Below, piece by piece: positions 20,434 through 57,631 of a stretch of 64,000 bases of DNA. The translations under genes and the position numbers were made by a program. The notes beneath the pieces are model-generated. The model saw only the letters and a program-made list of their open reading frames with translations. It was not told the DNA's origin and did not search any database. The stretch covers positions 372,001 to 436,000 of the forward strand of contig NZ_VFPQ01000001.1 of assembly GCF_006716785.1 (NCBI RefSeq). The letters run 5' to 3'. Positions within the stretch are counted from its first letter, which is position 1. Each line of letters begins with the position of its first letter. Source of the DNA: Thermopolyspora flexuosa. GTDB lineage: Bacteria > Actinomycetota > Actinomycetes > Streptosporangiales > Streptosporangiaceae.

Positions 20434-21837
20434 CTACCCGGACAACCTACCGTTCATCCGGTCGGTGGGGGAGTCACTTGCCGCGTTGTGACCCGGCGCC
20501 GCGCCGTTGAGCCCGCCGTTGAACTCGCCGTTCGCGTCGCCGCCGATCTCGCCGGGGCGGTCCGGCGGATCGCCGATCGACTCGAGCAGCTCGGGGGTGA
20601 CCAGGCCGCGGGGCAGGTCCTCGACGAGGGCGGGCTCGCGGAGCGTGCCCTCGACGAGCCCGAGGTCCCGCATCTTGCGGGCGCTCACCAGCACCCGGCT
20701 CTCCAGCGAGCCCACCGTGGTGTTGTACGCGGCCACCGCACGGGTGAGCGCCCGGCCCAGCGCGTCGACGTTGCGGCCCAGGCTGCCGAGCCGTTCGTAC
20801 AGCTCCCGGCCGAGGTCGAAGACGGCCCTGGCGTTGCGGCTGAGCGCCGCCTGCTGCCAGGCGTAGTGCGCGGTGCGCAGCATCGTGATCAGCGTGGTCG
20901 GAGTGGCGATGTGCACCCGGCGGCCCAGCGCATGCTCCAGCAGCCCGGGATCGCGCTCCAGCGCGGGCGCGAGGAACGCCTCGCCGGGGATGAACAGCAC
21001 GACGAACTCGGGCGCGGGCGAGAACGCCTGCCAGTACGCCTTGGCGGCTAGCCGGTCCACGTGCTCGCGCAGGTGGCGGGCGTGCGCGTCGAGCCGCTCG
21101 GCGACCACCGCCGGGTCGTCCGCCTCGGCCGCCTCCAGGTACGCGGCGAGCGAGACCTTGGCGTCGACGACGATGTTCTTGCCCCCGGCGAGCCGTACCA
21201 CCATGTCCGGGCGGACCGTGCCGTCGACGGTGGCCGCGGTCGCCTGCTCGTCGAAGTCGCAGAATCGCGACATCCCGGCGATCTCGGCCACCCGGCGGAG
21301 CTGCAGCTCGCCCCACCGGCCGCGCGCCTCGGGGCGGCGCAGCGCGCGCACCAGCGCCGCGGTCTGGTCGCGCAGCTCGTGCGAGCTCTGCCGGACGAAC
21401 TCCATCTGCTTGACCAGCTCGGCCTGGGCCTCCCGGCGCCGCGCCTCGGCCTCGCGCAGCTGCTCCTCGACCTTGGCGAGCGTCTCCCGCAGCGGGGTGA
21501 CGAGGTGTTCCACCGCCTGCTTGCGCCGCTCCAGCTCCCCGGCGGCCTCGGCCCGGCCCGCGGCGAGCCGGTTCTCGGCCAGCTCCAGGAAACGGAGGTT
21601 GTTGACGTCGAGCGCGCGGGTGGCGAGCGCCTGGAACCGGTCGGCGAGCCGTTCCTCGACGTAGCCGACCATCTCCTCGGCGGCCTTGGCCCGCGCCTCG
21701 GCCGCCGCGGCGCGCGCCGCCGCGCCCGCCGACTCGGCGGCGGCCCGGGCCCGGGCCAGCGCGAAACCGATCGCCATGCCCGCGGCGAGGCCGACGACGA
21801 GCAGTACGAGTGCGAGGAGGTCCACGCTCGCGATCAT
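20434..21837 (-). CDS. rmuC: DNA recombination protein RmuC homologue
   Basis: 467 aa. An N-terminal membrane anchor (about 4-28) is followed by a long coiled coil (about 30-160) and the RmuC nuclease-like domain (about 170-380) with GRWGELQLRRVAEIAGM, RPDMVVRL and VVDAKVSLAAYLEA. RmuC limits inversion at short inverted repeats in E. coli. ATG 21837 places the anchor at the N-terminus; the frame extends to 21870. It is divergent from ychF with a 67-nt gap. Confidence 0.92.
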   Translation of the reverse strand: MIASVDLLALVLLVVGLAAGMAIGFALARARAAAESAGAAARAAAAEARAKAAEEMVGYVEERLADRFQALATRALDVNNLRFLELAENRLAAGRAEAAGELERRKQAVEHLVTPLRETLAKVEEQLREAEARRREAQAELVKQMEFVRQSSHELRDQTAALVRALRRPEARGRWGELQLRRVAEIAGMSRFCDFDEQATAATVDGTVRPDMVVRLAGGKNIVVDAKVSLAAYLEAAEADDPAVVAERLDAHARHLREHVDRLAAKAYWQAFSPAPEFVVLFIPGEAFLAPALERDPGLLEHALGRRVHIATPTTLITMLRTAHYAWQQAALSRNARAVFDLGRELYERLGSLGRNVDALGRALTRAVAAYNTTVGSLESRVLVSARKMRDLGLVEGTLREPALVEDLPRGLVTPELLESIGDPPDRPGEIGGDANGEFNGGLNGAAPGHNAASDSPTDRMNGRLSG

Positions 21838-21890
21838 CCCAAGGCGACCGCTGCGCGAGCGCGCCGACACGCCCGGTCGTCCGCGGCACG

Positions 21891-21904: not shown

Positions 21905-22993
21905 GTGAGCCTCAGCATCGGCATCGTCGGCCTGCCCAACGTCGGCAAGTCCACCCTGTTCAACGCGCTGACCAAGAGCGGAAACGCCTTGGCGGCGAAC
22001 TACCCGTTCGCGACGATCGAGCCGAACGTGGGCATCGTCGGCGTGCCGGACCCCCGGCTGCAGAAGCTGGCGGAGATCTTCGGCTCGGCCCGGATCGTGC
22101 CCGCGAAGGTGGAGTTCGTCGACATCGCCGGCCTGGTCCGGGGCGCCTCGGAGGGCCAGGGCCGGGGCAACAAGTTCCTCGCCAACATCCGCGAGACCGA
22201 CGCGATCTGCCAGGTCATCCGGGTGTTCTCGGACCCGGACGTGACCCACGTGGACGGCGAGGTGTCGCCGGAGCGCGACATCGAGACGATCAACACCGAG
22301 CTCATCCTCGCCGACCTGCAGACCCTGGACAAGGCGCTGCCCCGGCTGCAGAAGGAGGCGCGGTTCAACAAGGAGCGCAAGGTCGTCCTCGACGCCGCCG
22401 AGGCCGCGGTCAAGATCCTCGACTCCGGCACCACGCTGTACAGCGCGGGCAAGCAGGGCGCGATCAACCTCGACGACCTGCGGGAGCTGCACCTGCTCAC
22501 CGCCAAGCCGTTCCTGTACGTGTTCAACCTCGACACCGACGAGCTGGCCGACACCGAGCTGCGCGCCCGGTTGTCCGCGCTCGTCGCCCCGGCCGAGGCG
22601 GTGTTCCTCGACGCCAAGCTCGAGTCCGAGCTGGTGGAGCTGCCCGAGGACGAGGCGATGGAGCTGCTGCAGTCGGTCGGCCAGGAGGAGTCCGGCCTCG
22701 CCCAGCTCGCCCGGGTCGGCTTCGAGACGCTCGGCCTGCAGACCTTCCTGACCGCGGGGCCCAAGGAGGCCCGCGCCTGGACGATCCGCAAGGGCGCCAC
22801 CGCCCCCGAGGCGGCCGGCGTCATCCACTCCGACTTCCAGCGCGGGTTCATCAAGGCGGAGGTCATCTCCTTCGACGACCTCGTCGAGGCGGGCTCCGTC
22901 GCCGCCGTCCGGGCCGCCGGAAAGGCGCGCATCGAGGGCAAGGACTACGTGATGCAGGACGGCGACGTCGTGGAGTTCCGGTTCAACGTGTGA
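21905..22993 (+). CDS. ychF: Redox-regulated ATPase YchF (OLA1 family)
   Basis: 362 aa from GTG 21905. Obg-like P-loop protein that prefers ATP: G1 GLPNVGKST, G3 DIAGLVRGASEG, NxxD-type region FNLDTDEL, and a C-terminal TGS domain (GAGxxG replaced by RKGATAPEAAGVIHSDFQRG). It binds ribosomes and influences translation and stress responses. The frame is open further upstream, antisense to rmuC, without support. Confidence 0.96.
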   Translation: MSLSIGIVGLPNVGKSTLFNALTKSGNALAANYPFATIEPNVGIVGVPDPRLQKLAEIFGSARIVPAKVEFVDIAGLVRGASEGQGRGNKFLANIRETDAICQVIRVFSDPDVTHVDGEVSPERDIETINTELILADLQTLDKALPRLQKEARFNKERKVVLDAAEAAVKILDSGTTLYSAGKQGAINLDDLRELHLLTAKPFLYVFNLDTDELADTELRARLSALVAPAEAVFLDAKLESELVELPEDEAMELLQSVGQEESGLAQLARVGFETLGLQTFLTAGPKEARAWTIRKGATAPEAAGVIHSDFQRGFIKAEVISFDDLVEAGSVAAVRAAGKARIEGKDYVMQDGDVVEFRFNV

Positions 22994-25284: not shown

Positions 25285-26113
25285 CCCCGGGACGTACGGC
25301 GGGCCGGCCGGGGCACGGGCCACGGCCGTGGACACGGCGCCCGGCACGGCGTACGGCATGGCGTGTCCGACGTGGTGTGTCCGACGGTGGCGTCCGGTGC
25401 GGTGGGGAAACGTTCGGCGACGGCGGCCGCCCGTTATCCGGGACGAGCTGGACAAACGTCAGAAACGCGGCGGCATTCGCTAGCAGCGGACATTGCCGCG
25501 AGTGTCGCCCGAATTGTCCACTTACTGACACCGTGTCCGAGTGGCGGGTGATGCGAATGTGCAGGTCATCGCGTATTTGGGCGGTTTCTTCCGATGCGTG
25601 ATGACCTGCCGCCGGCACGGCGGCGGCCCACGTTGTCCGTGTCCCTGATGGTGGGGCGGCGGGGCGGTAAGGGAAAGTATTCGCGGGGCCTCCGCACGCC
25701 CGCCGCCCCGGCCCGGACGGCCGGACGGCACGGGTGTGAGGAGCCTCACGCGGCGCGGGTCCGGAGCCGACGTCCACCCGTGGTGCGTCTTACCTGACGT
25801 CCCGTATTTCGGGACGACTGTGGCGTGAAGGATAGGGAGGTCTGACCTTCGGGGGAACGCTATGTGGCGCGGCGGATGTCGCGGACCGGGCGTAATGTGC
25901 GTTGTTCACATCGGCGTCCCACCGGGATAGCGGTGCGTCGACGGTGATGCATACCCGGTTTGCGTAGTTGCGGCGATGCTTGCAGCATGGGCGTGGCTTT
26001 CCTGTAACAATTGGCAAGGCCGCTAGGGTGAACACTTCATCGGGCATAAGCAGGACTGAAAGTACTCGGACTAGAGCGCGCCGGCCCGCAGGACAGGCGC
26101 GAGCGGAGGCGTG
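25285..26113. other. 829-nt region before the T4SS-like operon
   Basis: No gene is supported on either strand; open frames are compositional. Base composition falls toward the right. It holds the 14-mer CGTCTTACCTGACG (25786-25799), the overlapping hairpin CGTCCCG-TATTT-CGGGACG (25798-25816) and a small palindrome ATGCT-TGC-AGCAT (25976-25988). It is long for this genome and probably contains the operon promoter and leader; a small RNA cannot be excluded. Confidence 0.45.
25786..25816 (+). promoter_or_regulatory. 14-mer plus hairpin upstream of T4SS-like operon
   Basis: CGTCTTACCTGACG at 25786-25799 overlaps a 7-bp hairpin at 25798-25816, about 300 nt before the operon start. The same 14-mer lies on the minus strand at 2938-2925 before the second kinase gene, also close to an inverted repeat. 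Confidence 0.45.
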
Positions 26114-27118
26114 ATGGCTCGCAGGTCGACCGTCCAGCAGGTCGCTGGCGACCACGAGCAGTCGGCGTACCCTTCGCCGGATCTTGACCTGGTGCCCCGG
26201 GGGCGTCGCGGGCGCCGGCTGCGCTGGAGCGGCAGCGGCGGCCGGTGGCTCGTCTGGATCGGACGGGCCGTGCTGTGGGCGTTGATCATCGTGATCCTGT
26301 TCAACGGGGTGCGGGCGCCGTTCGAAAGGTTCACTCAGGGGGAGCCCGCTCCGGCGGAGCCGACCGCCACGCCGGGCGCCGGGTTCCCCACCGAGCAGGC
26401 CGTCTCCTTCGCCAACCAGTTCGCCGCCGCCTACCTCAACTTCGACGCGGCCAACCCCGCCGTGCGCGCCCAGAAGCTCAAGCCGTTCCTGCCCGAAGCG
26501 GCCCACGACCAGTTCGGCTGGAACGGCTTCGGCCGCATGCAGGTCGTCGGCATCCAGCTCTCCCACGTCGAGGTGCAGGACGCCAACAACGGCGTGATCA
26601 CGTTCATGGTGCACTCGGGGGAGCGCCGCTGGCTGTTCTCCGTCCCGGTGTACGCCAGGGACGGCCGGTTCGTGGTCTCCCAGCGTCCCGCCCTGCTTCC
26701 CGCCCCGGGGCCCGCGGAGCTGCCCCCGGCGCCGCAGACCGAGCAGGACGAGGCGACGGCGGCCGAGCTCACCCCGCAGCTCAAGGGCTTCTTCGAGGCG
26801 TTCGCGTCCGGCGACGCGGAGCAGCTGCGGCGGTACGTCGCCGCCGGCGTCGACATCCAGGGCTTCAACGGGGCGTTCACACTCGCCCAGCTCAAGCAGG
26901 TGATCGTGCCCCCGGGCGGCAACACGAGGTCGGTCACCGCGATCGTGGTGTGGGCGATCCCGGCGAGCACGCCGACCGCCGACCCCGCGGCCCAGCCCAC
27001 GGACGCGCCGGTGGACCCGCCCGGCGCGCTCGAGCAGGCCTATCGGCTCACGGTGGAGAAGCAGGGTGACAAGTGGTTCGTCAAGGACGTCCGCGGTGCG
27101 AGCCGGGCCGTGGAGTGA
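26114..27118 (+). CDS. TcpC/VirB8-like conjugal transfer protein
   Basis: 334 aa. A basic cytoplasmic N-terminus and one membrane span (about 43-63) precede two NTF2-like domains, about 90-195 (AVSFANQFAAAYLNFD) and 215-330 (LKGFFEAFASGDAEQLRRYV). This is the layout of TcpC, the VirB8-like scaffold of Gram-positive conjugation machines. ATG 26114 has GGAGG 4 nt upstream; GTG 26111 is an alternative. First gene of a seven-gene run on one strand. Confidence 0.8.
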   Translation: MARRSTVQQVAGDHEQSAYPSPDLDLVPRGRRGRRLRWSGSGGRWLVWIGRAVLWALIIVILFNGVRAPFERFTQGEPAPAEPTATPGAGFPTEQAVSFANQFAAAYLNFDAANPAVRAQKLKPFLPEAAHDQFGWNGFGRMQVVGIQLSHVEVQDANNGVITFMVHSGERRWLFSVPVYARDGRFVVSQRPALLPAPGPAELPPAPQTEQDEATAAELTPQLKGFFEAFASGDAEQLRRYVAAGVDIQGFNGAFTLAQLKQVIVPPGGNTRSVTAIVVWAIPASTPTADPAAQPTDAPVDPPGALEQAYRLTVEKQGDKWFVKDVRGASRAVE

Positions 27119-27169
27119 GGCCGGTGGCCGGGCCGGTGGTCGTGACGGCCATGAGCAGGAGGACCCACA

Positions 27170-27454
27170 TTGATCGTGCAGACCATGGTGCAGACGCTGG
27201 AAGGTCTTGCCACCCCGGCCCCGAGCCCCACCGGAGTGGACACCCAGGGCCTCGCCGATTTCCTGCGTGGCTTCTTCGGTCCGCTCTTCCTGGTGGTCGT
27301 CTCGGTCGTTGCGATTTTTTTCCTTTTTACCCGTGAAATCACCAGGTTCGTGCAGTTCATTATTCTGGCGATCGGCATCGGCATTATTTTCTACGTACCC
27401 AACATCATCGAGGTGACGGCTCGGGCGATCGCGGGGGCGCTTGGCATCAGGTAG
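27170..27454 (+). CDS. Small two-span membrane protein of T4SS-like operon
   Basis: 94 aa. A short Thr/Pro-rich N-terminus precedes two hydrophobic segments (about 37-57 and 62-80, including FFGPLFLVVVSVVAIFFLF and FIILAIGIGIIFYVP). Size and topology recall VirB2/TrbC pilins or TcpD-type proteins, but sequence identity is not evident to me. The TTG start at 27170 is favoured by GGAGG 7 nt upstream (27158-27162). Local GC is lower than in neighbours, as expected for Phe/Ile-rich spans. Confidence 0.7.
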   Translation: MIVQTMVQTLEGLATPAPSPTGVDTQGLADFLRGFFGPLFLVVVSVVAIFFLFTREITRFVQFIILAIGIGIIFYVPNIIEVTARAIAGALGIR

Positions 27455-27489
27455 CCGGGATCGAGTAGCGGGAGAGGAGGGGGAACCAG

Positions 27490-30264
27490 GTGGATCTGCC
27501 CACGTACACCAATATCTGGCGGATCGAGAAGCGGCTGTACAAACTGTACGACCTTCGCCTGCCAATGCCGCTTCCGGTCGTCTGGATCGGTGTCTTTCTT
27601 GGGGTTCTGGCCGTCTGGACACTTCTTCTCCGGTTACTCCGCGTCCCTTTTGAAACCCCCTGGCACGTGCTCTATCTCGTGCCGCCCGGCGTGGTGACGT
27701 GGCTGTCCACCCGCCCGGTCATCGAGAACAAGCGGCTCACCGAGCTGCTCCAGTCGCAGCTCCGGTACCTGGGCGAGCCGCGCACCTGGTGCCGCATGGC
27801 CCCCGCCACGGAGCCGGACGAGATCCGGTTCGAGGCCCGCGTCTGGCGTCTGCCTCCGGAGGCCGCCCACGCCCTCGCGGCGAAGCGGGCGAAGCGCCGC
27901 GCCAAGGCGGAGGCGGCGGCCCGCAAGCGCGCCCGCGGCCGTGCGACCTCCCCGGCCACGGTCCCGGCGGCGCCGGCGGCGAAGTCCCCGGCGCCCTCCC
28001 CGGCGCGGGCGCTGCGGGGCCGCGCCGCGACCTCGGCCGCACCGCCGCTCGCCATCGGGGCGGGCGAGCCCGCGGCGGGGTCCGGGAACGGCGCGCGGGC
28101 CCGGGCGGGCGCGCCCGCGGAACCGGCCCTCCGGCCCGCGGAGCCGACGCCGGTCGCCGCCACGCCCGCCGTGCCGGGTGACGACGCCGCCGACCGCCAC
28201 GTGGTGGGCGAGATCAACCCCGCCGTCGCGGCCGCGGCGGCCGCCGTCACCGGCGCACGCGCCGACGCGGACGCGGCCGGGGACGGCGCGACCGCCCGGC
28301 GCGACCGCGGACGGGCACGTGCCGACGACGGCACCGCGGCCCGGCACAAGGAGGCCGTCACCGCGGGGCGGCCCGATGACGCCGAGCGCGGCGTGGCCGA
28401 GCCCGTGCCCGTGGCGAGCGCGAGCACCGATGCCGCCCGGACCGCCGACGACGGGGCCGGCGCGGAGCGGCCGCTGCAGTGGGGCGACGTGACCACCCCG
28501 CCGTGGAGCAGCGCCGCGGCCGCGGCGGACGAGACCGGTGCCTCGGTGGAGACGCGGGAGGACGACGCCGTCACCTCGCCGGGAGGCGGCGTGGTACGGC
28601 TGCTGCCCGTGCTGGGCACCGATGTCCGGGTTGCCCGCCGGAGGGGCGAGCGGGGGCCCGCGGCCTCCGGGTCCACGCCGGAGGCGGGCGACCGGCCCGC
28701 CACGCCCGCCGGGCTCGGCGTCGAGGCCCTGCGCAGGCTGCGCCGCCTCGCCACCGGCGCCGAGCGCACGGCGGAGACCGGCCCGGCCGAGGCGCCCACG
28801 ACCCCGTCGCCGTCCGCGGAGCCCTCGCCGGTGGCCGCGGAGACGGCGCACACCACCGCGCGGCGGGCGGAGGCCGCGCCGGATCGTGCGGCGACGGCCC
28901 CGGCGACCGGCGGCCCGGACCGGCCCGCCGACGCCACGGCGGACGAGCCCGTCACCGCGGCGAGCACTGCGGCGAGCACCGCGCCGAGCGGCGCCACCAC
29001 GGACGCCGCCGCGGCGCATGGCACGGCGCACGGCACGGCGGTCGGCGGCACCGCGCCGACGGCCGCACCGCAGCAGGACGCCCGGCCGCCGGAAGCGGGC
29101 CGGACGAGCGCCGCGGCCGAGGACGCCGCGGCCGACGACGACCTCGCCGAGGCGCGGCGGCAGCACCGCAGGGGCAGGCCGCCCCGGCGCAGCCGGCCGC
29201 CGCAGCGGCGCGGCCCGGCCACCCCGGTCACGATCCGGGCCGTGCCCGCCCCCGACCCCGCCGAGGCGACCAACCCGGCCGCGCCCGCCGTACCCGACCC
29301 GGCGGTCCGCCGGTTCCCCGAGCCCAAGGTGCGCCGGGTGGAGGCGGTGGTCGGCCGCGACACCTCCGGCGGCTGGCGGCGGCTCGCCCAGGTCGTGGTC
29401 GGCGTGGGCACCGGCCGCAGCGACGGCAGCGAGATCGACGAGGCCCGCGCCCGGTCGGCGATCAGCACGAGCAAGCGCATCGTCGTGCTCGGCTGCACCG
29501 GCGGCGCCGGGCAGACCACCACCGCGCTCATGCTCGGCCACACCCTCGCCACCTACCGCGAGGACCGGGTGCTCGCCGTGGACGCCAACACCGGCCCGCG
29601 CACCCTGTCGCACATGATCGCGGCCGAGTCGCCGGAGACGCTCACCTCGCTGCTCGAAGGCCTCGACGAGGTGAGCGGCTACCTGAGCATGCGCGCCTAC
29701 ACCACCCGCTGCGCCTCCGGCCTGGAGGTGATCGCCGCCGACACCGACGAGCACGCCACGCAGCGGCTCGCCGACCGGTCGATCCTCTCCGACCAGCGGC
29801 TCGCCGAGGCGATCCGCATGCTCGACCGGCACTACAAGCTGATCCTGATCGACCCGGCCGCGGCCGTGGCCGCCCGCGTCCTGCCGTACGCGGACCAGCT
29901 CATCCTGGTCGCCCCGGCGAGCGCGGACGCCCCGGACGCGATCGCGATGACCTACGACTGGCTCGACGGCCACGGCTGCAGCGACCTGCGCCGCCGCGCG
30001 GTGCTCGTGGTGAACGGCGTGAGCCGCCGCAGCCAGGAGGACGTCGAGCAGGCCGAGAGCGTGGCGAGCGGCCGGTGCCGGGCGATCGTGCGGGTGCCGT
30101 GGGACGAGGAGCTCGCCCCCGGCGGCACCGAGCCGCTCGAGCTCGGCCACCTGCGGGCCGCGACCCGGCGCGCGTACGTGGCGCTCGCCGGCGTGGTGGC
30201 GAGCGGGCTCGGCGCGGAGCGGCTGCGGGACCGCGCGGCACGGGCGGCGAACGAGGACCGATGA
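27490..30264 (+). CDS. TcpE-like membrane domain fused to MinD/ParA-like ATPase
   Basis: 924 aa. Residues about 1-115 resemble TcpE/PrgI (VirB3-like): YTNIWRIEKRLYKLYDLRLP, then two membrane spans. Residues about 140-630 are an Ala/Pro/Thr/Asp-rich low-complexity linker. Residues about 660-905 are a MinD/ParA-type ATPase: VVLGCTGGAGQTTTALMLGH, VLAVDANTGPRT, and LILIDPAAAVAARVLPYADQ. The signature Lys and P-loop Lys of KGGxGKT are Thr and Gln here, so ATP hydrolysis is doubtful unless this subfamily is adapted. It presumably links the secretion platform to a partner through the linker. GTG 27490 has AGGAGG upstream. Confidence 0.78.
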   Translation: MDLPTYTNIWRIEKRLYKLYDLRLPMPLPVVWIGVFLGVLAVWTLLLRLLRVPFETPWHVLYLVPPGVVTWLSTRPVIENKRLTELLQSQLRYLGEPRTWCRMAPATEPDEIRFEARVWRLPPEAAHALAAKRAKRRAKAEAAARKRARGRATSPATVPAAPAAKSPAPSPARALRGRAATSAAPPLAIGAGEPAAGSGNGARARAGAPAEPALRPAEPTPVAATPAVPGDDAADRHVVGEINPAVAAAAAAVTGARADADAAGDGATARRDRGRARADDGTAARHKEAVTAGRPDDAERGVAEPVPVASASTDAARTADDGAGAERPLQWGDVTTPPWSSAAAAADETGASVETREDDAVTSPGGGVVRLLPVLGTDVRVARRRGERGPAASGSTPEAGDRPATPAGLGVEALRRLRRLATGAERTAETGPAEAPTTPSPSAEPSPVAAETAHTTARRAEAAPDRAATAPATGGPDRPADATADEPVTAASTAASTAPSGATTDAAAAHGTAHGTAVGGTAPTAAPQQDARPPEAGRTSAAAEDAAADDDLAEARRQHRRGRPPRRSRPPQRRGPATPVTIRAVPAPDPAEATNPAAPAVPDPAVRRFPEPKVRRVEAVVGRDTSGGWRRLAQVVVGVGTGRSDGSEIDEARARSAISTSKRIVVLGCTGGAGQTTTALMLGHTLATYREDRVLAVDANTGPRTLSHMIAAESPETLTSLLEGLDEVSGYLSMRAYTTRCASGLEVIAADTDEHATQRLADRSILSDQRLAEAIRMLDRHYKLILIDPAAAVAARVLPYADQLILVAPASADAPDAIAMTYDWLDGHGCSDLRRRAVLVVNGVSRRSQEDVEQAESVASGRCRAIVRVPWDEELAPGGTEPLELGHLRAATRRAYVALAGVVASGLGAERLRDRAARAANEDR

Positions 30265-30288
30265 CGCGGCGAGAGAAGTGGTGAACCG

Positions 30289-32814
30289 GTGACCAGGGCG
30301 TCGAGGGCACGAAGCAGGCTGGCCGTACGGTATTTCGACGACCGCATCCTCCTCACCGACACGGCGGCCTGGGCGTACTTCCGGCTGCCGACGGTGAGCT
30401 ACGAGTTCATCACCGCCGAGGAGCGCGAGGCCCTCGCCAACAACATCACGATCGCGCTCGCCGCGATCCGCATGCCGGACGCCGAGGTGCACCTGCGGGT
30501 CGCGCACCGCGCCTACCCGGCGGCCGAGTGGGCGATGCAGCTCAACGAGACCTCCGACCAGGGGCCGGGCTGGCGCGAGTACCTCGAGGAGATGTACCGC
30601 CACGTGTGGGCGAAGGACTTCTGGACCAAGGAGGTCTACCTCGGGGTACGGCTCGGCCAGCGCGGCGCCCAGCTCGGCACCGGCTTCCTCGCCCAGCTGT
30701 TCGGCGCGTACCGGCGCGGCGAGCGGATCCTCGGCCTCGAGGACGACCACGTGCCGGAGCGGGAGATCGACCGGTGGACCGACGCGGCCGAGCGGCTCGG
30801 CCGCGCCCTCGCCTCCAGCGCGCTGCACGCCCGGCACGCCACCGCCACCGAGATCGCCTGGCTGTTCCAGCACGCGGTCCACGGCTCGATCGGCGACCCG
30901 CCGCCCCCGGCGTCGCGGTCCCGCGGCTGGGGCCGGGGCGAGATCGAGATGCTCGTCGAGGGCCAGATCCACAACGGCCGGTCCATGCTGTGCGTGGAGC
31001 AGCCCGCGGGCGAGTCGTACGTGGCGCACCTGTCGTTCGCCCGCTTCCCCGACCTCATGCCGTTCCCGGACGGCGAGCCGTGGCTGCACTTCGCCGACCA
31101 GCTGCCGTTCCCGGTCGAGGTGTCGAGCCGGATGCGGCTGGTGCCGCCGGTGCGGGCGAGCCGCGACGTGGCGCGCAAGCTCGCGCACGCCCGGGACATG
31201 GACATCCACATCCGGGAGGCGGGCGCGGAGGCGCCGCTCGCGCTCGCCGAGCAGATCGACGCCGCCCGCATGCTCGAGCACGGCATCACCAAGGAGCGGC
31301 TGCCGTTCGTGTACGGCTGGCACCGGCTGATCGTGTCCGCCCCGACCGAGGAGATCTGCCGCCAGCGCATCGAGGCGGTGATCGAGCACTACCGCGACAT
31401 GGGCATCGACGTGGTGAACTCCACCGGCGACCAGTGGTCGCTGTTCTGCGAGTCGCTGCCCGGCGACCGGGTGCGGGTGAACGCCTACGCCCAGCGGCAG
31501 CCGCTGCGCACCATCGCGGGCGGCATGGCCACGGCCACGGTGGAGCTCGGCGACCGGCCGGAGGAGGGCGGCTGGGTCGGGCCGTACATCGGGGAGACGC
31601 TCGGCCGGGCGCGGTCGATCGTGCACTTCGACCCGCTCGTCGCGGCGGTGCGCAACCGCCCCACGGCGATCGCGATCACCGGCGAGCCGGGCGGGGGTAA
31701 GACGACTCTGGCCCTGCTCCTCATCTATCAAATGGCGCTCCGAGGTGTCACCATCGCGGTGATCGACCCGAAAGGAGACGCCGAGTCGCTCGTGCGATTG
31801 CTGCAGAGGCGTGGCCGCAAGGCGCGCGTCGTCCCGCTGGGGTCGGCCGCGCCGGGCCTGCTCGACCCGTTCTCCTTCGGCGACGATCTCGCCACGAAGA
31901 AGACGATGGCGACCGAGACGCTGCGGCTGCTGCTGCCGCGCATGTCCGAGGAGCGCGAGTCGGCGATGATCCAGGCGGTGGCCGCGGTGGCGAACGGCCC
32001 GTCGCCGTCGCTCGGCAAGGTCGTGGAGTACCTCGAGCGGTCCGACGACCCGGCGTCGAAGAACCTCGGCGCGGTGCTGCGCTCGATGTCCGAGATGCAC
32101 CTCGCCCGGCTGTGCTTCGACCCGTCGGGCGGGGAGCGGTTCGAGACCGCCGGGTGGACCACGGTGTTCACCCTCGGCGGGCTCACCCTGCCGGACGTGG
32201 CCACGAACCGCGACGACTACAGCTACGAGCAGCGGCTCTCGGTCGCGCTGCTCTACCTCGTGGCGCAGTTCGCCCGCGGGCTGATGAACGGCCTCGACCG
32301 GCGCCTGCCCAAGGCGATCTTCCTCGACGAGGCGTGGGCGATCACCTCCACGCCCGAGGGCGCCAAGCTCGTGCCCGAGGTGAGCCGCATGGGCCGGTCC
32401 CGCAACACCGCGCTCGTGCTGGTCTCGCAGAACGCCGGCGACCTGCTCAACGAGCAGGTGACGAACTGCCTGTCGTCGGTGTTCGCGTTCCGCTCCACCG
32501 AGCGGGTCGAGGTGGAGAACGTGATGGCGCTGCTCGGCGTGGAGCCGACCGAGGAGCACAAGGCCGTGCTGCGGTCGCTCGGCAACGGCGAGTGCATCTT
32601 CCGGGACCTCGACGGCCGCGCCGGCCGCATCGGGGTCGACCTGATCTCCGACGAGCTGCTGCGGTGGCTCGACACGAATCCGACGCATGACAAGCCCGTC
32701 GGCGAGGCCGACGATCCGCACGGCGGTGCGGACGTCACGGACGCTCGTCTCGGCGGCGTGCAAGGCGGGGGCACCGGCGGTTCGGGGGCGGTGACGCAGG
32801 AGGTGCGGTCATGA
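30289..32814 (+). CDS. VirB4/TcpF-like secretion ATPase
   Basis: 841 aa. The N-terminal 440 residues match the VirB4/TraC-type adaptor domain in character. The motor domain has Walker A GEPGGGKTT (about 465-473), an IDPKGDAE motif, and Walker B AIFLDEAW (about 676-683), followed by a sensor-like SQN in VLVSQNAGDLLNEQ. VirB4 is the universal energy source of type IV secretion. The GTG start lies 24 nt after the previous stop. The stop overlaps the next gene by an ATGA tetranucleotide, so translation is coupled. Confidence 0.85.
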   Translation: MTRASRARSRLAVRYFDDRILLTDTAAWAYFRLPTVSYEFITAEEREALANNITIALAAIRMPDAEVHLRVAHRAYPAAEWAMQLNETSDQGPGWREYLEEMYRHVWAKDFWTKEVYLGVRLGQRGAQLGTGFLAQLFGAYRRGERILGLEDDHVPEREIDRWTDAAERLGRALASSALHARHATATEIAWLFQHAVHGSIGDPPPPASRSRGWGRGEIEMLVEGQIHNGRSMLCVEQPAGESYVAHLSFARFPDLMPFPDGEPWLHFADQLPFPVEVSSRMRLVPPVRASRDVARKLAHARDMDIHIREAGAEAPLALAEQIDAARMLEHGITKERLPFVYGWHRLIVSAPTEEICRQRIEAVIEHYRDMGIDVVNSTGDQWSLFCESLPGDRVRVNAYAQRQPLRTIAGGMATATVELGDRPEEGGWVGPYIGETLGRARSIVHFDPLVAAVRNRPTAIAITGEPGGGKTTLALLLIYQMALRGVTIAVIDPKGDAESLVRLLQRRGRKARVVPLGSAAPGLLDPFSFGDDLATKKTMATETLRLLLPRMSEERESAMIQAVAAVANGPSPSLGKVVEYLERSDDPASKNLGAVLRSMSEMHLARLCFDPSGGERFETAGWTTVFTLGGLTLPDVATNRDDYSYEQRLSVALLYLVAQFARGLMNGLDRRLPKAIFLDEAWAITSTPEGAKLVPEVSRMGRSRNTALVLVSQNAGDLLNEQVTNCLSSVFAFRSTERVEVENVMALLGVEPTEEHKAVLRSLGNGECIFRDLDGRAGRIGVDLISDELLRWLDTNPTHDKPVGEADDPHGGADVTDARLGGVQGGGTGGSGAVTQEVRS

Positions 32815-35210
32815 GGGTTCCCGTACGGGAACGGCGTAACCGGGTGGGCGGCACGGCGGGCACCGCGGCGAGGGCGCGCGAACCGGTACGGCGGCGCAGG
32901 CGGCTGGTGCGGCGGGTCGCGCTCGCGCTCGTCGCCGCGATCGGCCTCGCGCTGGCGCCGCTCGCCTTCCCGAACTCGGCGGCGGTCGCCGCGCCGTGCG
33001 ACATGTCCGGGGATCTCACCCCGGCGGTGGTCGGCAGCGGCGTGGACGGCCTGATCAAGCCGCCCCCGGCGACCATCGCCGCCCCGGAGCCCGAGGGCGG
33101 GGCCGGCGACCCGTCGGGCACCGGGCCGCAGCAGGGCTCGGCCGGCCGACCCGAGCCGAAGACCAACTACGAGCGGTACGGCATGGCCGGCCAGTTCTGG
33201 CACACCTACGACCTCGGCTGCACCGACATGGGCGCGGTGCTCGGCAACGCCTGGGCCAACACGATCTTCTCCACCGCCAAGGCGCTCAACCGGCTCACCA
33301 TCACCACCTACCAGGCCGCCGCCACCGAGGGGCCACTGCGGGCGATCAAGGACGTGGTGGACGACATCGTCACCAACCTCGCCAACGCCCTGTACTGGCC
33401 GTACCTGCGGGTGATCGTCATCCTCGCGGCGATCTGGCTCGCCTGGTACGGGCTGATCCGCAAGCGGGCGACCGTCACCACCGAGGGCGTCATCTGGATG
33501 GTGTGCGCGGTCACCGTCGCGGTGTGGTTCTTCAGCCGCCCGGGCGACTTCACCGGCATGGGCACCACGGTCACCGACAAGACCGGCGAGATCGTCACCT
33601 CGGCGTTCGCCGGGCTGCCCGGCGCGGCGGGCTCCTCCTGCCTGCCGCTGAAGGGCCAGGACGGGCCGGACGCGGTGCCCGCGTCCTACGACGGGGTGTC
33701 CGTGGTGGACCGCAACGCCGACCAGCTGTGGTCGACGTTCGTGTGCAAGCCGTGGCTGATGGGCGTGTTCGGCACCGCCGACCCGTCGACCACCCAGGTG
33801 AAGACCCTCGGCGCGAAGCTGCTCGACATCCAGGCGATCGACGTGCAGGAGCAGGGCGCGCAGCCGCAGAACTCCGCGGCGCACCAGGCCCGGTACGTCG
33901 AGGAGATCGTCACCCCGATGCGGAGCACCCCGACGTTCTTCCTGTTCCAGGGCAAGGACTGGACGTCGCGGCTCGGCATCGCGTTCGGCGCGCTCGTCGC
34001 CGCGGTGGTCGCGGGCCTGCTGATCTTCCTCGTCGCGGTGTCCCTGCTCGTGCTCAAGATCGGCTTTTTGATCCTGCTCATCCTCGGGCCGGTCTTCCTG
34101 CTCATCGGCGTGCACCCGGGCACCGGGCGGATCATCGCGATGCGCTGGCTGGAGATGCTCATCGGCACGCTGCTGCGGCAGGCCCTGCTCGCGCTGCTGC
34201 TCGGCGTGCTCGTGTACGGCTACGCGCTGATCATGTCCACCGGGCTGCCGTGGGGCATGCAGATCACGTTCATGGCGCTGCTCACCATCGCCACGTTCTT
34301 CTACCGGCGGCCGTTCCAGCACCTGTTCGCCTCGATGGACGGGCACACGATCACCACGCGGGTGCTCGGCGAGGCGGCCACCGCCCCGACCCTGTCGCGG
34401 GCCGCGGCGGTGCTGCCGCCGGTCATGGGCTACCGGGTCGGCCGGTGGACGCTGCGCCGCGCCGAGCCGCTCATCTCGGCGGCGGCCCGCGGCCACGCCG
34501 CCGGATCGGCCGCGGCCGCGGCGGCCACCGGGGTGGCCCAGGGCCGGGTGCGTGCCGAGGAGGGCGCGGCGGCGGGCGCTGCGGCCGGGGTCCGGGTGGC
34601 CGAGGGCGGCCGGCCCGCGCCGCTGGAGACCGAGGCGGCCGGGCGGCGCAGGCTCGCCGGGGCCGCGCCGCGGACCGGGTCGGCCCCGCCGCTGCGGCTG
34701 TCCGGCGGCTCGGGCGGCGCCACGGCGTCCGGCGCCGGCGCGGCGACGCGGGTGACCCGGGCCGCGGCGACCCGCGCCACCGAGGGCGGCTCGTCGCGCC
34801 TCGGCGGCTGGTTCAGCGGGTCCGGCGGCGGCTGGGCGTCGCACCGGTCCTCCGGCGGGTCGTCCCGGTCCTCCGGGAACGGCTCCGGCGGCGGGGGCTG
34901 GTTCGGCGGGCGGTCGCGCGGCTCGTCCGGCGGCTGGTTCGGTGGCGGCTCGCGCGGCTCCGGCGGGTCGGGCGGCTCGTCGCGGAGCTCCGGCACCGAG
35001 CGGTCGCGCTCCTCGTCGTCCGGCGGCGGCGGGCTGTTCGGCGGTGGCTCCTCGGCGCCGCGCCGTACCGCGGCCACCGTGCACGAGAGCGGGCCGTGGG
35101 CGCGCAACGGGTCGCGGCCCGAGCCGCCGCCGCTGTGGTTGCCGAGCCGTTCCGAGGAGGACACCGGGCCGTTCTGGCTGCGTCCGGCGAAGCGGGACTC
35201 CGACGACTAG
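32811..35210 (+). CDS. VirB6/TrbL-like polytopic membrane protein with Gly/Ser/Trp-Phe tail
   Basis: 799 aa. A basic N-terminus and signal or anchor segment (about 35-60, ending AAVAAPC) are followed by an extracytoplasmic loop, spans at about 198-216 and 225-243, a second loop with Cys residues, and spans at about 387-435, 455-475 and 482-500. From about 560 it is cytoplasmic and low-complexity; about 660-760 repeats GGWF/GGGWFGG with Arg-Gly and Ser. The topology fits VirB6/TcpH-type channel proteins. It is coupled to the VirB4 gene by ATGA. Confidence 0.78.
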   Translation: MRVPVRERRNRVGGTAGTAARAREPVRRRRRLVRRVALALVAAIGLALAPLAFPNSAAVAAPCDMSGDLTPAVVGSGVDGLIKPPPATIAAPEPEGGAGDPSGTGPQQGSAGRPEPKTNYERYGMAGQFWHTYDLGCTDMGAVLGNAWANTIFSTAKALNRLTITTYQAAATEGPLRAIKDVVDDIVTNLANALYWPYLRVIVILAAIWLAWYGLIRKRATVTTEGVIWMVCAVTVAVWFFSRPGDFTGMGTTVTDKTGEIVTSAFAGLPGAAGSSCLPLKGQDGPDAVPASYDGVSVVDRNADQLWSTFVCKPWLMGVFGTADPSTTQVKTLGAKLLDIQAIDVQEQGAQPQNSAAHQARYVEEIVTPMRSTPTFFLFQGKDWTSRLGIAFGALVAAVVAGLLIFLVAVSLLVLKIGFLILLILGPVFLLIGVHPGTGRIIAMRWLEMLIGTLLRQALLALLLGVLVYGYALIMSTGLPWGMQITFMALLTIATFFYRRPFQHLFASMDGHTITTRVLGEAATAPTLSRAAAVLPPVMGYRVGRWTLRRAEPLISAAARGHAAGSAAAAAATGVAQGRVRAEEGAAAGAAAGVRVAEGGRPAPLETEAAGRRRLAGAAPRTGSAPPLRLSGGSGGATASGAGAATRVTRAAATRATEGGSSRLGGWFSGSGGGWASHRSSGGSSRSSGNGSGGGGWFGGRSRGSSGGWFGGGSRGSGGSGGSSRSSGTERSRSSSSGGGGLFGGGSSAPRRTAATVHESGPWARNGSRPEPPPLWLPSRSEEDTGPFWLRPAKRDSDD

Positions 35211-35222
35211 GGACCGGCCGCG

Positions 35223-35915
35223 ATGTCGCAGGGTATCGACGGCAGGAGGGTCGTCTTCGCCGCCGTGGTCGCCGTGCTCGCGGCCCTCGGCGTCTACCTG
35301 CTGGTCGCCCCCGACCCGCAGGACGGCGAGGCGGGCCCGGCCGGCACCCCGGCGGCGGGCGGCGGGGAGGGCACGGCGGCGCCGCGTGCCTCCGGCTCGG
35401 CCGCGCCCTCTCCACCCGCCTCGGTGAACCCGCAGGAGTTCGACATCTACGCCTACCTGCCGTGGTCGCGGGAGCAGCTCGCGGCCTCGGCGGACGTGGC
35501 GCGGCGGTTCCTCGCCCAGTACGCCACCCACCGGCACGACGAGGACCCGATCAGCTACGCGGAACGGCTGAAGTCGTTCACCACCACCGAGCTCGCCACC
35601 TCGCTCACCCGCACGGTCACCGACCCGCGGCGGGTGGAGCAGGAGCGGGCCGACCAGGTGGTGTCCGAGGGCACCGCGCGGATCCGGCAGATCCGCACGT
35701 TCGGGGAGAACTCCATCACCTGGGTGGGCACCGCGACCGAGCGCATCACCGCGGCGAGCGGGCGGCGGGAGGTGGTCCAGGAGTACGCGGTGACCACGAT
35801 CCAGGTCGGTGAGGCCTGGAAGGTCTACGACTTCAACCTCGCCGAGGCCGGGCAGGAGGGCGACGCCGCCGGTCCGGCCCCCGGCGGCTCCGGCGGTGAG
35901 GAGCGGGCGGAATGA
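35223..35915 (+). CDS. Single-span VirB8-like accessory protein
   Basis: 230 aa. One N-terminal span (about 10-30, VFAAVVAVLAALGVYLLVA) and a Pro/Ala/Gly-rich linker precede a globular domain (about 70-210) that alternates helices and strands as in NTF2-like VirB8 folds (VARRFLAQYATHR, EYAVTTIQVGEAWKVYDFN). Assignment is by layout and neighbours, not clear identity. It begins 12 nt after the channel gene and overlaps the next gene by ATGA. Confidence 0.68.
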   Translation: MSQGIDGRRVVFAAVVAVLAALGVYLLVAPDPQDGEAGPAGTPAAGGGEGTAAPRASGSAAPSPPASVNPQEFDIYAYLPWSREQLAASADVARRFLAQYATHRHDEDPISYAERLKSFTTTELATSLTRTVTDPRRVEQERADQVVSEGTARIRQIRTFGENSITWVGTATERITAASGRREVVQEYAVTTIQVGEAWKVYDFNLAEAGQEGDAAGPAPGGSGGEERAE

Positions 35916-37027
35916 CCGCCGGCGGCATGGGCTCCGGCCGCTCCCGGGGCCACCTGCTCATCGTCGTGCTCGCCCTGTCCGGGCTGCTGCTGGTGGTGCT
36001 CGTCGTGGCGCCGATGCTGCTCACCACGTTCACGCTGCCGTTCGGCGGCCTCGGCTTCGGCGCGGACTGCGCCGAGGCGGCCGCCGACCGCGAGGACCTC
36101 TCGAAGACGGCGCGGGACGACATCCCCGAGGACTACCTGAAGCTGTACAAGGAGCACGGCGCGCGGATCGGCGTGCAGTGGAACGTGCTCGCCGCGATCG
36201 GCAAGCGCGAGACCGACCACGGCCGCTCCACGCTGCCCGGGGTGCGCAGCGGCACCAACTACGCCGGGGCGGCCGGGCCGATGCAGTTCCTCATCAGCAC
36301 CTGGGGCGGCAAGCCGCAGATCGACGTGCGGTCGGAGAAGTTCAACGGGTACGCCTCGGACGGCGACGGCGACGGCATCGGCGACGTGTACAACCCGGCC
36401 GACGCGATCCTCGGCGCGGCGAAGATGCTCAAGCGCAACGGCGCCCCCGACGACCTGCGGCGCGCGATCTTCGCCTACAACCACGCAACCTGGTACGTCG
36501 ACCAGGTGCTCGAGATCGCCCGGCGGTACGCGGCCTCCGGCGAGGTGGAGACGCTGCCGGACTCGAACCCGCTGTGCGACCCGTCGTACGTGAACGGCGC
36601 GCCCAGCCGGCTCGTGGCCAAGATCCTCGACTACGCGCTCGCCCAGCGCGGCAAGCCGTACCGATGGGGCGGCACCGGGCCGGACGCGTTCGACTGCTCC
36701 GGCATCGTCTACATGGCCTACCGGCACGCCGGGCTGACGATCCCGCGCACCACGTTCGGCCAGTGGCCGTTCGGGGTGCGGATCGAGCCGGGCGAGGAGC
36801 AGCCGGGCGACCTGGTGTTCTTCAACACCGGCCCGGGCACCCGGCCGGACAGCCCGGGGCACGTCGGGCTCGTGGTCGCGCCGGGCAAGATGATCGAGGC
36901 GCGGTGCACGAACTGCGGGCCGATCAAGGTGACCACGTACCGGGACCGGCCGGCCCTGGTCGGCTTCACCCGGCCGCTGGAGAACCCCGAGGTGAAGGAG
37001 CAGGTGCGCCGCCTCGGCCTCGCCTGA
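35912..37027 (+). CDS. VirB1/TcpG-type peptidoglycan hydrolase (SLT plus NlpC/P60)
   Basis: 371 aa. An N-terminal span (about 13-37) anchors two hydrolase domains outside the cell. The lysozyme-like transglycosylase (about 70-200) has a catalytic Glu near residue 99 (GKRETDHGRS) and AGPMQFLISTWG. The NlpC/P60 domain (about 235-355) has catalytic Cys near 261 (FDCSGIVYMAYRHAG) and His near 316 (SPGHVGLVV). Such two-headed enzymes open the wall for conjugation machinery. Last gene of the T4SS-like run. Confidence 0.9.
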   Translation: MTAGGMGSGRSRGHLLIVVLALSGLLLVVLVVAPMLLTTFTLPFGGLGFGADCAEAAADREDLSKTARDDIPEDYLKLYKEHGARIGVQWNVLAAIGKRETDHGRSTLPGVRSGTNYAGAAGPMQFLISTWGGKPQIDVRSEKFNGYASDGDGDGIGDVYNPADAILGAAKMLKRNGAPDDLRRAIFAYNHATWYVDQVLEIARRYAASGEVETLPDSNPLCDPSYVNGAPSRLVAKILDYALAQRGKPYRWGGTGPDAFDCSGIVYMAYRHAGLTIPRTTFGQWPFGVRIEPGEEQPGDLVFFNTGPGTRPDSPGHVGLVVAPGKMIEARCTNCGPIKVTTYRDRPALVGFTRPLENPEVKEQVRRLGLA

Positions 37028-37184
37028 CGGTGTCCTCGTCCGGCCCGCCCCGGCCCGGTTCCGGCATTTCCCCGGCCGTGCCGTACCGGGGACCCAATGC
37101 GCCGGCGGGCATTCGCCGCGCATACGAAAGGTAACGGCTGCCCATCGACCACAATGCGGTCGTTCGCCGGTCGCCGCCGTCCTT

Positions 37185-37190
37185 TAGGGT
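37185..37190 (+). promoter_or_regulatory. -10 element of NUDIX gene (leaderless)
   Basis: TAGGGT ends 8 nt before ATG 37199, separating this gene's transcription from the upstream operon. Confidence 0.4.
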
Positions 37191-37198
37191 CTTCTTTC

Positions 37199-37600
37199 AT
37201 GGGCATAGTGGTGGGGGCCGCGATCATCTCGGACGGCAGGCTGCTCGCCGCGCAGCGTGCCGCGCCCGCGGAGCTCGCCGGGGGGTGGGAGTTCCCCGGC
37301 GGCAAGGTGCACCACGGGGAGACCGACGAGGAGGCGCTCATCCGGGAGTGCCAGGAGGAGCTCGGCGTCGTGGTCTCGCTCGGCGAGCGGGTGGGCGGGG
37401 ACTGGCCGCTCGGCGACGACATGGTGCTGCGGGTGTGGTTCGCCACGGTCGTCGCGGGCACGCCGGTCGCCCGGGAGCACCTGGCGCTGCGCTGGCTCGC
37501 CCCGGACGAGCTGTTCGACGTGCCCTGGCTGCCCGGGGACCTGCCCGTGGTACGGCGGGTGCGGCAGATGCTGCCGGACCTGCTCGGCCTGAGCGAATGA
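37199..37600 (+). CDS. NUDIX hydrolase (MutT-like)
   Basis: 133 aa. The Nudix box GGKVHHGETDEEALIRECQEEL is nearly canonical (G-x5-E-x7-RE-x2-EE), with a WEFPGGK lead-in typical of MutT/CTP-pyrophosphatase members. It hydrolyses a nucleoside diphosphate linked to another group; 8-oxo-dGTP is one option. ATG 37199 is preferred over the longer open frame from 37097. Confidence 0.92.
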   Translation: MGIVVGAAIISDGRLLAAQRAAPAELAGGWEFPGGKVHHGETDEEALIRECQEELGVVVSLGERVGGDWPLGDDMVLRVWFATVVAGTPVAREHLALRWLAPDELFDVPWLPGDLPVVRRVRQMLPDLLGLSE

Positions 37601-37725: not shown

Positions 37726-37793
37726 GCAGTTGCTTTCCCAAACTAGTATTCCTCTGACCCGAATTGCGAAGCGAGGACGGCGGAGGAACGGCG

Positions 37794-55372: not shown

Positions 55373-55445
55373 CGGTTCCAACCGGACACGGAATATGAAG
55401 AAGAAATCATCAAATATCGGGAGATGTGCGGATTAGCGTAGGGGA
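55373..55445. other. AT-rich spacer between helicase and HTH gene
   Basis: The 73-nt gap contains an unusually A/T-rich run at about 55389-55424 (GAAGAAGAAATCATC and similar). It could hold a promoter for the HTH gene or mark its separate origin. Confidence 0.35.
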
Positions 55446-57518: not shown

Positions 57519-57631
57519 CTCGGCTGGGTGGTACGGGGTTCGGTGGGGCTGCGCGTCACGAGGGACGGAATGTGCCGGGTGGCTGCGCTACCGGGGTGGG
57601 GACATGGGTGGCTCGCGATGCCGAACAGTGA

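What the first reader, a model, noticed from the sequence alone, without database searches (positions are those of the whole stretch)
26114..37027. Type IV secretion-like operon without relaxase, coupling protein or integrase
Seven adjacent genes encode a coherent Tcp/VirB-type envelope machine, yet the window has no TcpA/FtsK coupling ATPase, relaxase, oriT-like cluster or integrase, and is surrounded by housekeeping genes with similar composition. It may be a domesticated chromosomal secretion or DNA-uptake system, not a conjugative element.
Basis: partly seen in the sequence, partly recalled or inferred. Interest (0 to 1): 0.75.

Follow-up and report, generated by a model that had tools for sequence, protein, structure and literature searches.

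The report
Chromosome-owned conjugation-like machine in actinomycetes
Seven neighbouring genes that look like the DNA-transfer pore of a conjugative plasmid turn out to be an inherited, regularly present part of the chromosome in a large family of soil actinomycetes, so a mobile-element machine seems to have been turned into a cell component whose job is not yet known.

Summary
Window 26111-37027 (+) encodes seven proteins of a Firmicutes/Actinobacteria-type (MPF_FA) conjugation pore: TcpC, a small membrane protein, a TcpE-MinD fusion, VirB4/TcpF, VirB6, a second VirB8-fold protein and an SLT+NlpC/P60 hydrolase. No relaxase, coupling protein or integrase was seen in the 50 window proteins scanned; the genome gives no VirD4 or TrwC match. 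Vertical inheritance is strong: VirB4 matches in 146 of 146 family genomes drawn; all seven genes are collinear in 68 of 68 distinct loci, mostly beside YchF/RmuC and MutT. VirB4 is as constrained as YchF. Nocardiopsis plasmids carry the same pore (VirB4 75% and 71%) with VirD4, a MobF relaxase and a separate MinD with intact P-loop; in chromosomal copies MinD is fused to TcpE (76 of 77) and its P-loop lysine is glutamine (93 of 93). Two further actinobacterial families carry their own versions (60 of 60 and 38 of 41 genomes). Function is unproven; the nearest tested precedent, Streptomyces cmdABCDEF, acts in sporulation (PMC2782261). New variant of a known kind.

The parts
26111..27118 (+). 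TcpC, VirB8-like bitopic protein (335 aa)
   Evidence: PF12642 E 6.3e-17, over cut-off; collinear in 68 of 68 distinct loci
27170..27454 (+). small membrane protein (94 aa; two hydrophobic stretches by eye), in the slot next to TcpE
   Evidence: no trusted profile; own profile hits Nocardiopsis plasmid proteins at 1e-40 and a Bacillus plasmid protein at 1e-11; 68 of 68 loci
27490..27800 (+). TcpE domain (VirB3-like) of the fusion protein
   Evidence: PF12648 E 5.1e-21, residues 5-103
27801..29391 (+). variable Ala/Pro/Arg-rich linker of the fusion protein (borders approximate)
   Evidence: read from translation; open frames holding both domains run from 663 to 1733 codons in 76 distinct copies
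29392..30264 (+). MinD/ParA-fold domain of the fusion, P-loop GCTGGAGQT with Gln for the catalytic Lys
   Evidence: AAA_31 1e-6; model pLDDT 88.5, best PDB matches ParA 3ea0, FlhG, FleN, MinD; Gln in 93 of 93 distinct copies and 11 of 11 further loci
30289..32814 (+). VirB4/TcpF ATPase (841 aa)
   Evidence: AAA_10 3.4e-67; NF052333 7.6e-70; Walker A in 93 of 93 distinct copies, Walker B in 100 of 100 loci
32811..35210 (+). VirB6/TcpH-like polytopic channel protein (799 aa)
   Evidence: PF04610 9e-9; NF046089 3.3e-22, under cut-off
35223..35915 (+). second VirB8-like protein: one helix plus NTF2 fold (230 aa)
   Evidence: no family match; AlphaFold pLDDT 82, best PDB match PrgL VirB8 domain E 1.9e-5
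35912..37027 (+). VirB1/CwlT-like bifunctional wall hydrolase, SLT + NlpC/P60 (371 aa)
   Evidence: PF00877 7.6e-20, PF13406 2.6e-5; Cys motif DCS[GA] in 80 of 80 distinct copies, GHxG in 86 of 87 loci
37097..37600 (+). NUDIX (MutT-like) gene, usual downstream neighbour, not a core part
   Evidence: PF00293 4.5e-18; 62 of 68 loci
21905..22993 (+). YchF GTPase, usual upstream neighbour (synteny marker)
   Evidence: PF06071 3.5e-39; 57 of 68 loci
20434..21870 (-). RmuC, usual upstream neighbour (synteny marker)
   Evidence: PF02646 1.3e-93; 50 of 68 loci

Best explanation
This is an MPF_FA-type conjugation pore that became a permanent chromosomal organelle in an ancestor of the family (shown: distribution, synteny, constraint; inferred: the direction mobile to chromosomal). 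It has kept the pore and its motor and lacks the DNA-handling parts of its plasmid cousins. Inferred working: the wall hydrolase opens peptidoglycan locally; TcpC and the second VirB8-fold protein line a path through membrane and wall around the VirB6 channel; VirB4, docked on TcpE, powers assembly or transport; the MinD-fold domain tethered to TcpE, which has lost the P-loop lysine, acts as a fixed positional or scaffold module instead of a cycling ATPase. With no VirD4 partner found, substrates would enter after Sec/Tat export or directly through VirB4, as discussed for Ptl, Brucella VirB and ComB. My commitment on purpose, at about 0.4 within this reading, is a host role in hyphal development or envelope export, by analogy with the Streptomyces cmd operon.
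For: VirB4 matches in 146 of 146 family genomes drawn. In the class draw of 394 genomes, 41 family genomes match at full strength (none among the unmatched rows shown), against 19 of the other 353 at 1e-40 with a broader profile (only two candidates per genome were scored). Seven genes collinear on one strand in 68 of 68 distinct loci, with YchF in 57 and MutT in 62. Distance correlation with YchF 0.87 and RmuC 0.83; VirB4 mean distance 0.120, YchF 0.144. Median dN/dS VirB4 0.078, YchF 0.096. VirB4 Walker A 93 of 93, hydrolase Cys motif 80 of 80, P-loop Gln 93 of 93 distinct copies. Own genome: VirD4 0, TrwC 0; its eight PF01580 matches are read as FtsK, EccC-like and two AICE genes. Plasmid cousin with the same pore plus VirD4 and MobF and a separate intact MinD. 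Two other families with family-wide versions, mostly in fixed places. cmdABCDEF precedent.
Against: No experiment. The plasmid copies could be captured chromosomal genes: monophyly of the chromosomal copies against them is neither shown nor rejected (AU p 0.53), so the direction rests on the MinD state. The second VirB8-fold protein evolves fast (dN/dS 0.475), unlike a purely internal housekeeping part. cmd is only distantly related: an ATPase of the cmd-like kind aligns weakly with VirB4, its SCO6880-type partner does not (tested with a plasmid's proteins, not with cmd itself), so the functional analogy is loose. Three genomes of another family of the same order lack a strong match. Fusion fails in 1 of 77 distinct copies (L063) and in one more locus (L246) where TcpE and MinD lie in two frames. 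A few genomes match VirB4 in two pieces. A HerA/DUF87-type coupling ATPase, as on the Bacillus plasmid, was not searched genome-wide.
Confidence: 0.82

Rival explanations
1. Host-supplied conjugation channel: the chromosome keeps the pore and resident plasmids that carry only a MobF relaxase and VirD4 use it in trans.
For: The Nocardiopsis plasmids pair this very pore type with MobF and VirD4. In genome G013 a plasmid-like 62-kb contig carries MobF (44%) and a frame-broken VirD4 relative (40%) but none of the pore genes in the 22-kb unit searched, and the only VirB4 match in that genome is the chromosomal one. Five of five Pseudonocardiaceae plasmids fetched have MobF and VirD4 matches and no pore-gene match.
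Against: The comparison group behaves the same: four of four Streptomyces plasmids fetched also have MobF and VirD4 without these pore genes. It is not a clean control, because Streptomyces chromosomes hold cmd and SCO6871-6884. VirD4 was found in 4 of 10 and TrwC in 1 of 10 family genomes, too rare to keep the pore everywhere. A Streptomyces cmd mutant transferred an SLP2-derived plasmid normally, but that plasmid has its own transfer genes.
Confidence: 0.17
2. DNA uptake or release machine, like H. pylori ComB or the gonococcal island.
For: T4CP-less pores are known for uptake in ComB (review PMC12857230, section 20 read).
Against: No competence family was seen among the window proteins scanned; no natural competence is known to me for the family (recalled); ComEC was not searched.
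Confidence: 0.1
3. Inactive remnant of an old integrative element.
For: No relaxase, coupling protein or integrase seen.
Against: Strong constraint and intact motifs over the family; all seven genes retained in 68 of 68 loci.
Confidence: 0.02

Closest known systems
MPF_FA conjugation systems (ICEBs1, Tn916, pCW3 recalled; here a Bacillus subtilis plasmid NZ_CP154917.1)
   Same: Same order TcpC, small protein, TcpE-type transfer protein, VirB4, VirB6-type, VirB8-fold, SLT/C40 hydrolase; VirB4 30% identical
   Different: The plasmid has one more small gene after VirB4, a DUF87 ATPase and a replication-relaxation protein; here none of these, and TcpE is fused to a MinD-fold domain
Nocardiopsis plasmids NZ_CP099838.1 and NZ_CP080600.1 (NZ_CP074136.1 of nearly the same length as the latter)
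   Same: VirB4 75% and 71%; all pore parts present
   Different: They carry VirD4 and MobF; MinD is a separate gene with intact KGGVGKTT; part of the set is inverted; the hydrolase read on L228 shows SLT only
Streptomyces cmdABCDEF (SCO4126-4131), PMC2782261
   Same: Chromosomal, conserved, VirB4-like ATPase beside membrane proteins, resembles plasmid transfer genes, not needed for transfer of an SLP2-derived plasmid (abstract and sections 5, 8, 10, 13 read)
   Different: Different sub-lineage: its ATPase has an SCO6880-type partner, and a protein of that family does not align with this VirB4; different gene set; known phenotype in sporulation
Patescibacteria T4SS, PMC12102498
   Same: Mostly relaxase-less, chromosomal, widespread monoderm T4SS (abstract and part 1 of section 13 read)
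   Different: Of MPF_FATA kin, with PrgI/TrsD-type parts; epibiont lifestyle
T4CP-less pores Ptl, Brucella VirB, ComB, Trw
   Same: Pore without VirD4 (PMC12857230, section 20 read)
   Different: Gram-negative systems, not homologous part for part (recalled)

Membership tests
MPF_FA-type T4SS (pore) | VirB4/TcpF ATPase with Walker A and B | tested here: met
   NF052333 score below its curated cut-off
MPF_FA-type T4SS (pore) | TcpC/VirB8, TcpE/VirB3, VirB6 and VirB1-like hydrolase in one operon | tested here: met
Conjugative element (ICE or plasmid) | relaxase | tested here: not met
   none among the 50 window proteins scanned; TrwC 0 matches in own genome; other relaxase families were not searched genome-wide
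Conjugative element (ICE or plasmid) | coupling protein VirD4 or TcpA/FtsK type | tested here: not met
   PF02534 0 in own genome; eight PF01580 matches read as FtsK, EccC-like, AICE; DUF87/HerA type not searched genome-wide
Conjugative element (ICE or plasmid) | integrase, variable presence among relatives | tested here: not met
   no integrase among the window proteins scanned; VirB4 matches in 146 of 146 family genomes; att sites not searched
Streptomyces cmd operon | SCO6880-type partner of the VirB4-like ATPase | tested here: not met
   profile comparison with a plasmid's SCO6880-family protein: probability 0.1%; cmd itself was not compared
Streptomyces cmd operon | needed for aerial growth and sporulation | not testable with these tools
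   needs a deletion mutant
Protein-secretion T4SS | secreted substrate dependent on the machine | not testable with these tools
   no candidate effector identified

The most novel reading that the evidence does not exclude
Several families of mycelial actinomycetes keep a conjugation pore as a core, vertically inherited organelle of their own, probably for development or export; in the window's family the plasmid's MinD-type positioning ATPase was welded to the pore protein TcpE and then disarmed (P-loop Lys to Gln in all copies read), turning a cycling positioner into a fixed anchor.
Probability: 0.5. Interest if true: 0.87.

Novelty: new variant of a known kind. Interest (0 to 1): 0.74.

Why it matters
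One survey of actinobacterial T4SS elements asked for integrase, relaxase and coupling protein beside VirB4 (PMC3218068), and another, which does recognise MOBless T4SS, reported few T4SS in the phylum (PMC3158045; passages of both read), so a family-wide pore without those parts is easily overlooked (inference). A 71-75% identical plasmid counterpart gives a before-and-after pair for how conjugation machines become cell organelles, and a clean genetic target: one seven-gene operon, one VirB4 match in the window's genome, in antibiotic-producing genera such as Nonomuraea, Streptosporangium and Microbispora (antibiotic production recalled).

Tried and rejected
Considered and set aside: an active ICE (present throughout the family, no integrase seen); a remnant (constraint too strong); an AICE (the genome has two, at C1:217 kb and C2:98 kb, read from L168 and L169, with FtsK-type transfer genes, unrelated to this operon); a defence system (of six operon proteins scanned, PADLOC gives only mad8 and a weak PDC-S73 match, both for VirB4). 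The plasmid-in-trans idea looked good in G013 and in Pseudonocardiaceae plasmids, but the Streptomyces comparison gave the same picture. Rooting of chromosomal against plasmid copies stayed open (long outgroup branches). The two Methyltransf_19 genes upstream are local: 1 of 75 loci. G022 has a VirD4 relative about 9 kb downstream of VirB4; tblastn at 1e-5 finds no relative of it in 50 other stretches, several of them from one genome, so it is not a conserved partner. tblastn of five coupling or relaxase proteins finds nothing beside the operon in 120 family loci and 11 f48 loci; in 3 of 11 f39 loci an FtsK-type gene answers. A plain alignment search with the window's MinD part missed it in 17 of 75 loci; the motif is there in 100 of 100. 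The 75 loci and the correlations and motif counts include genomes fetched twice; searches give the cleaned figures (93 distinct copies, window included). Fusion lengths printed are unreliable where the linker is long (start guessed); one search replaces them. Paper searches, judged mostly from listings, showed no description of a family-wide T4SS in these families; the library lacks most subscription journals, so this is not proof of absence.
Full report
What is there. Seven genes on the + strand, 26111-37027, follow each other with gaps of 12 to 51 bases or 4-base overlaps. By profile they are TcpC, an unassigned 94-aa membrane protein, a TcpE domain fused through a long low-complexity linker to a MinD/ParA-like domain, VirB4/TcpF, a TrbL/VirB6 protein, an unassigned 230-aa protein and an SLT plus NlpC/P60 hydrolase. 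The 230-aa protein is predicted as one helix plus an NTF2 fold, best matched by the VirB8 domain of PrgL and by CagV, IcmL-like and TraM structures, so the machine has two VirB8-like parts. A Bacillus subtilis plasmid has the same order with one extra small gene.

What is not there. Of 53 genes called in the window, 49 plus one further frame were scanned with Pfam: kinases, fumarase, aminotransferase, FBPase, exonuclease VII, LytB, RmuC, YchF, succinate dehydrogenase, CysS and the like; no integrase, relaxase or coupling protein was listed (in only matches at 1e-8 or better), and there is no tRNA. In the whole genome (5.77 Mb, 3 contigs) VirD4-type PF02534 and relaxase PF08751 give no match. 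FtsK-type PF01580 gives eight matches, which I read as FtsK, two EccC-like genes (by size and double domain, inference) and two AICE transfer genes, whose surroundings (integrase-, excisionase-, replication- and GntR-like genes, judged from translations, not profiles) are in L168 and L169. A HerA/DUF87 partner and other relaxase families were not searched genome-wide.

Vertical inheritance. VirB4 was found at 75-97% identity in 35 of 36 other family genomes of the close set, the miss being 74% complete, and in one genome of a second family of the order. In an even draw from the order 148 of 150 genomes match: 146 of 146 of the family, the second family's one genome, and one weak match; the three genomes of a third family have no strong match. 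In the class, the plain search matched 63 of 394: 41 family genomes (no family genome among the unmatched rows shown) and 22 others at 25-34% in the matched pieces.

Same place, same constraint. Of 100 copies read, window included, 93 are distinct by VirB4 DNA; 68 distinct loci have at least 7 kb on both sides, and all 68 carry the seven genes in the same order on one strand, with YchF in 57, RmuC in 50, MutT in 62. In 55 distinct loci VirB4 distances follow YchF (r 0.87) and RmuC (0.83), as well as these follow each other (0.77), and VirB4 is on average less diverged than YchF (0.120 against 0.144). Median dN/dS on 49 to 118 close pairs per gene, which share genomes and are not independent: VirB4 0.078, small protein 0.10, YchF 0.096, RmuC 0.13, MutT 0.21, TcpC 0.22, VirB6 0.25, hydrolase 0.26, second VirB8 0.475. 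VirB4 Walker A is intact in 93 of 93 distinct copies and the hydrolase Cys motif in 80 of 80; the SLT motif as I wrote it in 79 of 87 loci. A few genomes (G149, G101, G127, G025) match VirB4 in two pieces, which may be assembly or real breaks.

A mobile counterpart. Of 857 plasmid records with a VirB4 relative, only four exceed 60%: a Nonomuraea record of 11.9 Mb that is a chromosome by size, and three Nocardiopsis plasmids at 75, 71 and 71%, the last two of nearly the same length. The 90.9-kb N. exhalans plasmid holds all pore parts and also a VirD4 (PF02534 1e-15) and a 2251-aa MobF relaxase with TrwC, primase and helicase domains; the other two also match both. On the two plasmids read, MinD is a separate gene with an intact CIKGGVGKTT loop, recognised by the chromosomal MinD profile at 1e-54 and 2e-48. 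In the chromosomal copies the domain lies in one open frame with TcpE in 76 of 77 distinct copies that have the upstream genes (the exception is L063) and reads GC.GGAGQ[TS]: Gln for the P-loop Lys in 93 of 93 distinct copies. Eleven further loci from other branches all have the Gln; nine show the fusion in one frame, one is cut by a contig end, one (L246, whose VirB4 is also split) has the two domains in two frames. The structure is still a MinD/ParA fold (pLDDT 88.5). I infer loss of ATP cycling; nucleotide binding is untested. The fused, lysine-less state is easier to derive from the plasmid state than the reverse, but trees leave the root between them open (AU p 0.53).

Not alone. Distant relatives led to two more families, coded f48 and f39. 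A VirB4 of f48 matches in 60 of 60 genomes and 46 of 46 genera at 62-94%; one of f39 in 38 of 41 genomes and 37 of 40 genera at 71-94% (the query's own genome counted in both). In f48 the six pore genes (small protein, a TcpE-sized protein, VirB4, VirB6, VirB8-like, NlpC) occur in 10 of 10 further loci with the same flank in 8; in f39 small protein, TcpE-sized protein, VirB4, a VirB6-like protein and an M23 hydrolase occur in 10 of 10, beside folate genes in 6 (flank genes named by eye; the TcpE-sized proteins have no profile match). They form one starred clade with two sporadic sequences, apart from the window's clade. In f39 an FtsK/SpoIIIE gene (PF01580 4.5e-12 and 2.5e-14) lies about 5 kb from VirB4 and recurs in 4 of 10 loci; it could be a coupling partner. 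A Micromonospora lupini genome paper notes a lone VirB4-like gene among unknown neighbours (PMC4182475, passages). In the class draw with the broad profile, 15 of the 60 matching genomes belong to none of the three families.

What it may do. The review literature lists T4CP-less pores that secrete protein in two steps, elaborate pili or take up DNA (PMC12857230, section 20), and a mostly relaxase-less, widespread system in Patescibacteria (PMC12102498, abstract and part of section 13). The nearest tested precedent in actinomycetes is cmdABCDEF of Streptomyces: a conserved chromosomal operon with a VirB4-like ATPase, resembling SLP2 plasmid transfer genes; mutants fail in aerial growth, septation and chromosome segregation, while transfer of an SLP2-derived plasmid with its own transfer genes is unchanged (PMC2782261, abstract and sections 5, 8, 10, 13). 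It is not the same family as far as tested: an SCO6880-family protein from a plasmid does not align with this VirB4, its neighbouring ATPase does, weakly. I therefore commit, with modest confidence, to a host function in development or envelope export, and keep a plasmid-serving pore and DNA uptake as rivals.

A rival tested in part. If chromosomes lend the pore to plasmids, plasmids with MobF and VirD4 but no pore should be common in these hosts. Five of five Pseudonocardiaceae plasmids fetched and one plasmid-like contig of G013 fit, but so do four of four Streptomyces plasmids, whose hosts have other chromosomal VirB4-like clusters; one Glycomycetaceae plasmid instead holds an SCO6880-type set. 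The plasmids were picked from the best VirD4/MobF matches, not at random. The result does not favour the rival.

Verdict. It is a member of a known kind of pore, in a variant (relaxase-less, family-wide, with a disarmed MinD welded to TcpE) that I did not find described in the library searched.

Noticed in passing
window 53531-60064: Three-gene cluster on the - strand: 613-aa and 762-aa proteins with similar starts (no Pfam match at 1e-8) around a UvrD-type helicase whose best PADLOC match is GajB; possible defence cluster.
   Followed up: partly
window 23153-25284: Two Methyltransf_19 (S-adenosyl methyltransferase) genes between YchF and TcpC; relatives in 1 of 75 loci.
   Followed up: partly
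window 37764-39200: Conserved neighbour with Thr/Pro-rich outer part, one membrane segment and Pro-rich tail (by eye); a match in 67 of 68 distinct loci by ORF search, which may include low-complexity matches; 64 of 75 by tblastn; no Pfam match.
   Followed up: partly
L168 3625-12108, L169 5479-11546: Two AICE-like elements in the window's own genome (integrase-, excisionase-, Rep-, FtsK- and GntR-like genes by eye).
   Followed up: partly
L200, L201, L250-L258 and L186, L191, L259-L267: Two more actinobacterial families with family-wide pore operons, mostly in fixed places; f39 has an FtsK-type gene nearby in 4 of 10 loci.
   Followed up: partly
L185 9484-17140: In one genome of genus code g59 the VirB4 and VirB6 frames are about 7.6 kb apart, with a Ser/Thr kinase-like gene and others in between.
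   Followed up: no
L249, L268-L270: 62-kb contig of G013 with TrwC matches about 22.2 kb apart, suggesting a repeated plasmid (not confirmed base by base: identity at that shift 0.44, indels likely); MobF and VirD4 relatives but no pore genes in the unit searched.
   Followed up: partly
L175 9497-11404: VirD4 relative about 9 kb downstream of VirB4 in G022, not seen in 50 other stretches searched.
   Followed up: partly
window 27170-27454: The small membrane-protein gene has clearly lower GC (0.586, GC3 0.78) than its neighbours, though its sequence is well conserved.
   Followed up: no
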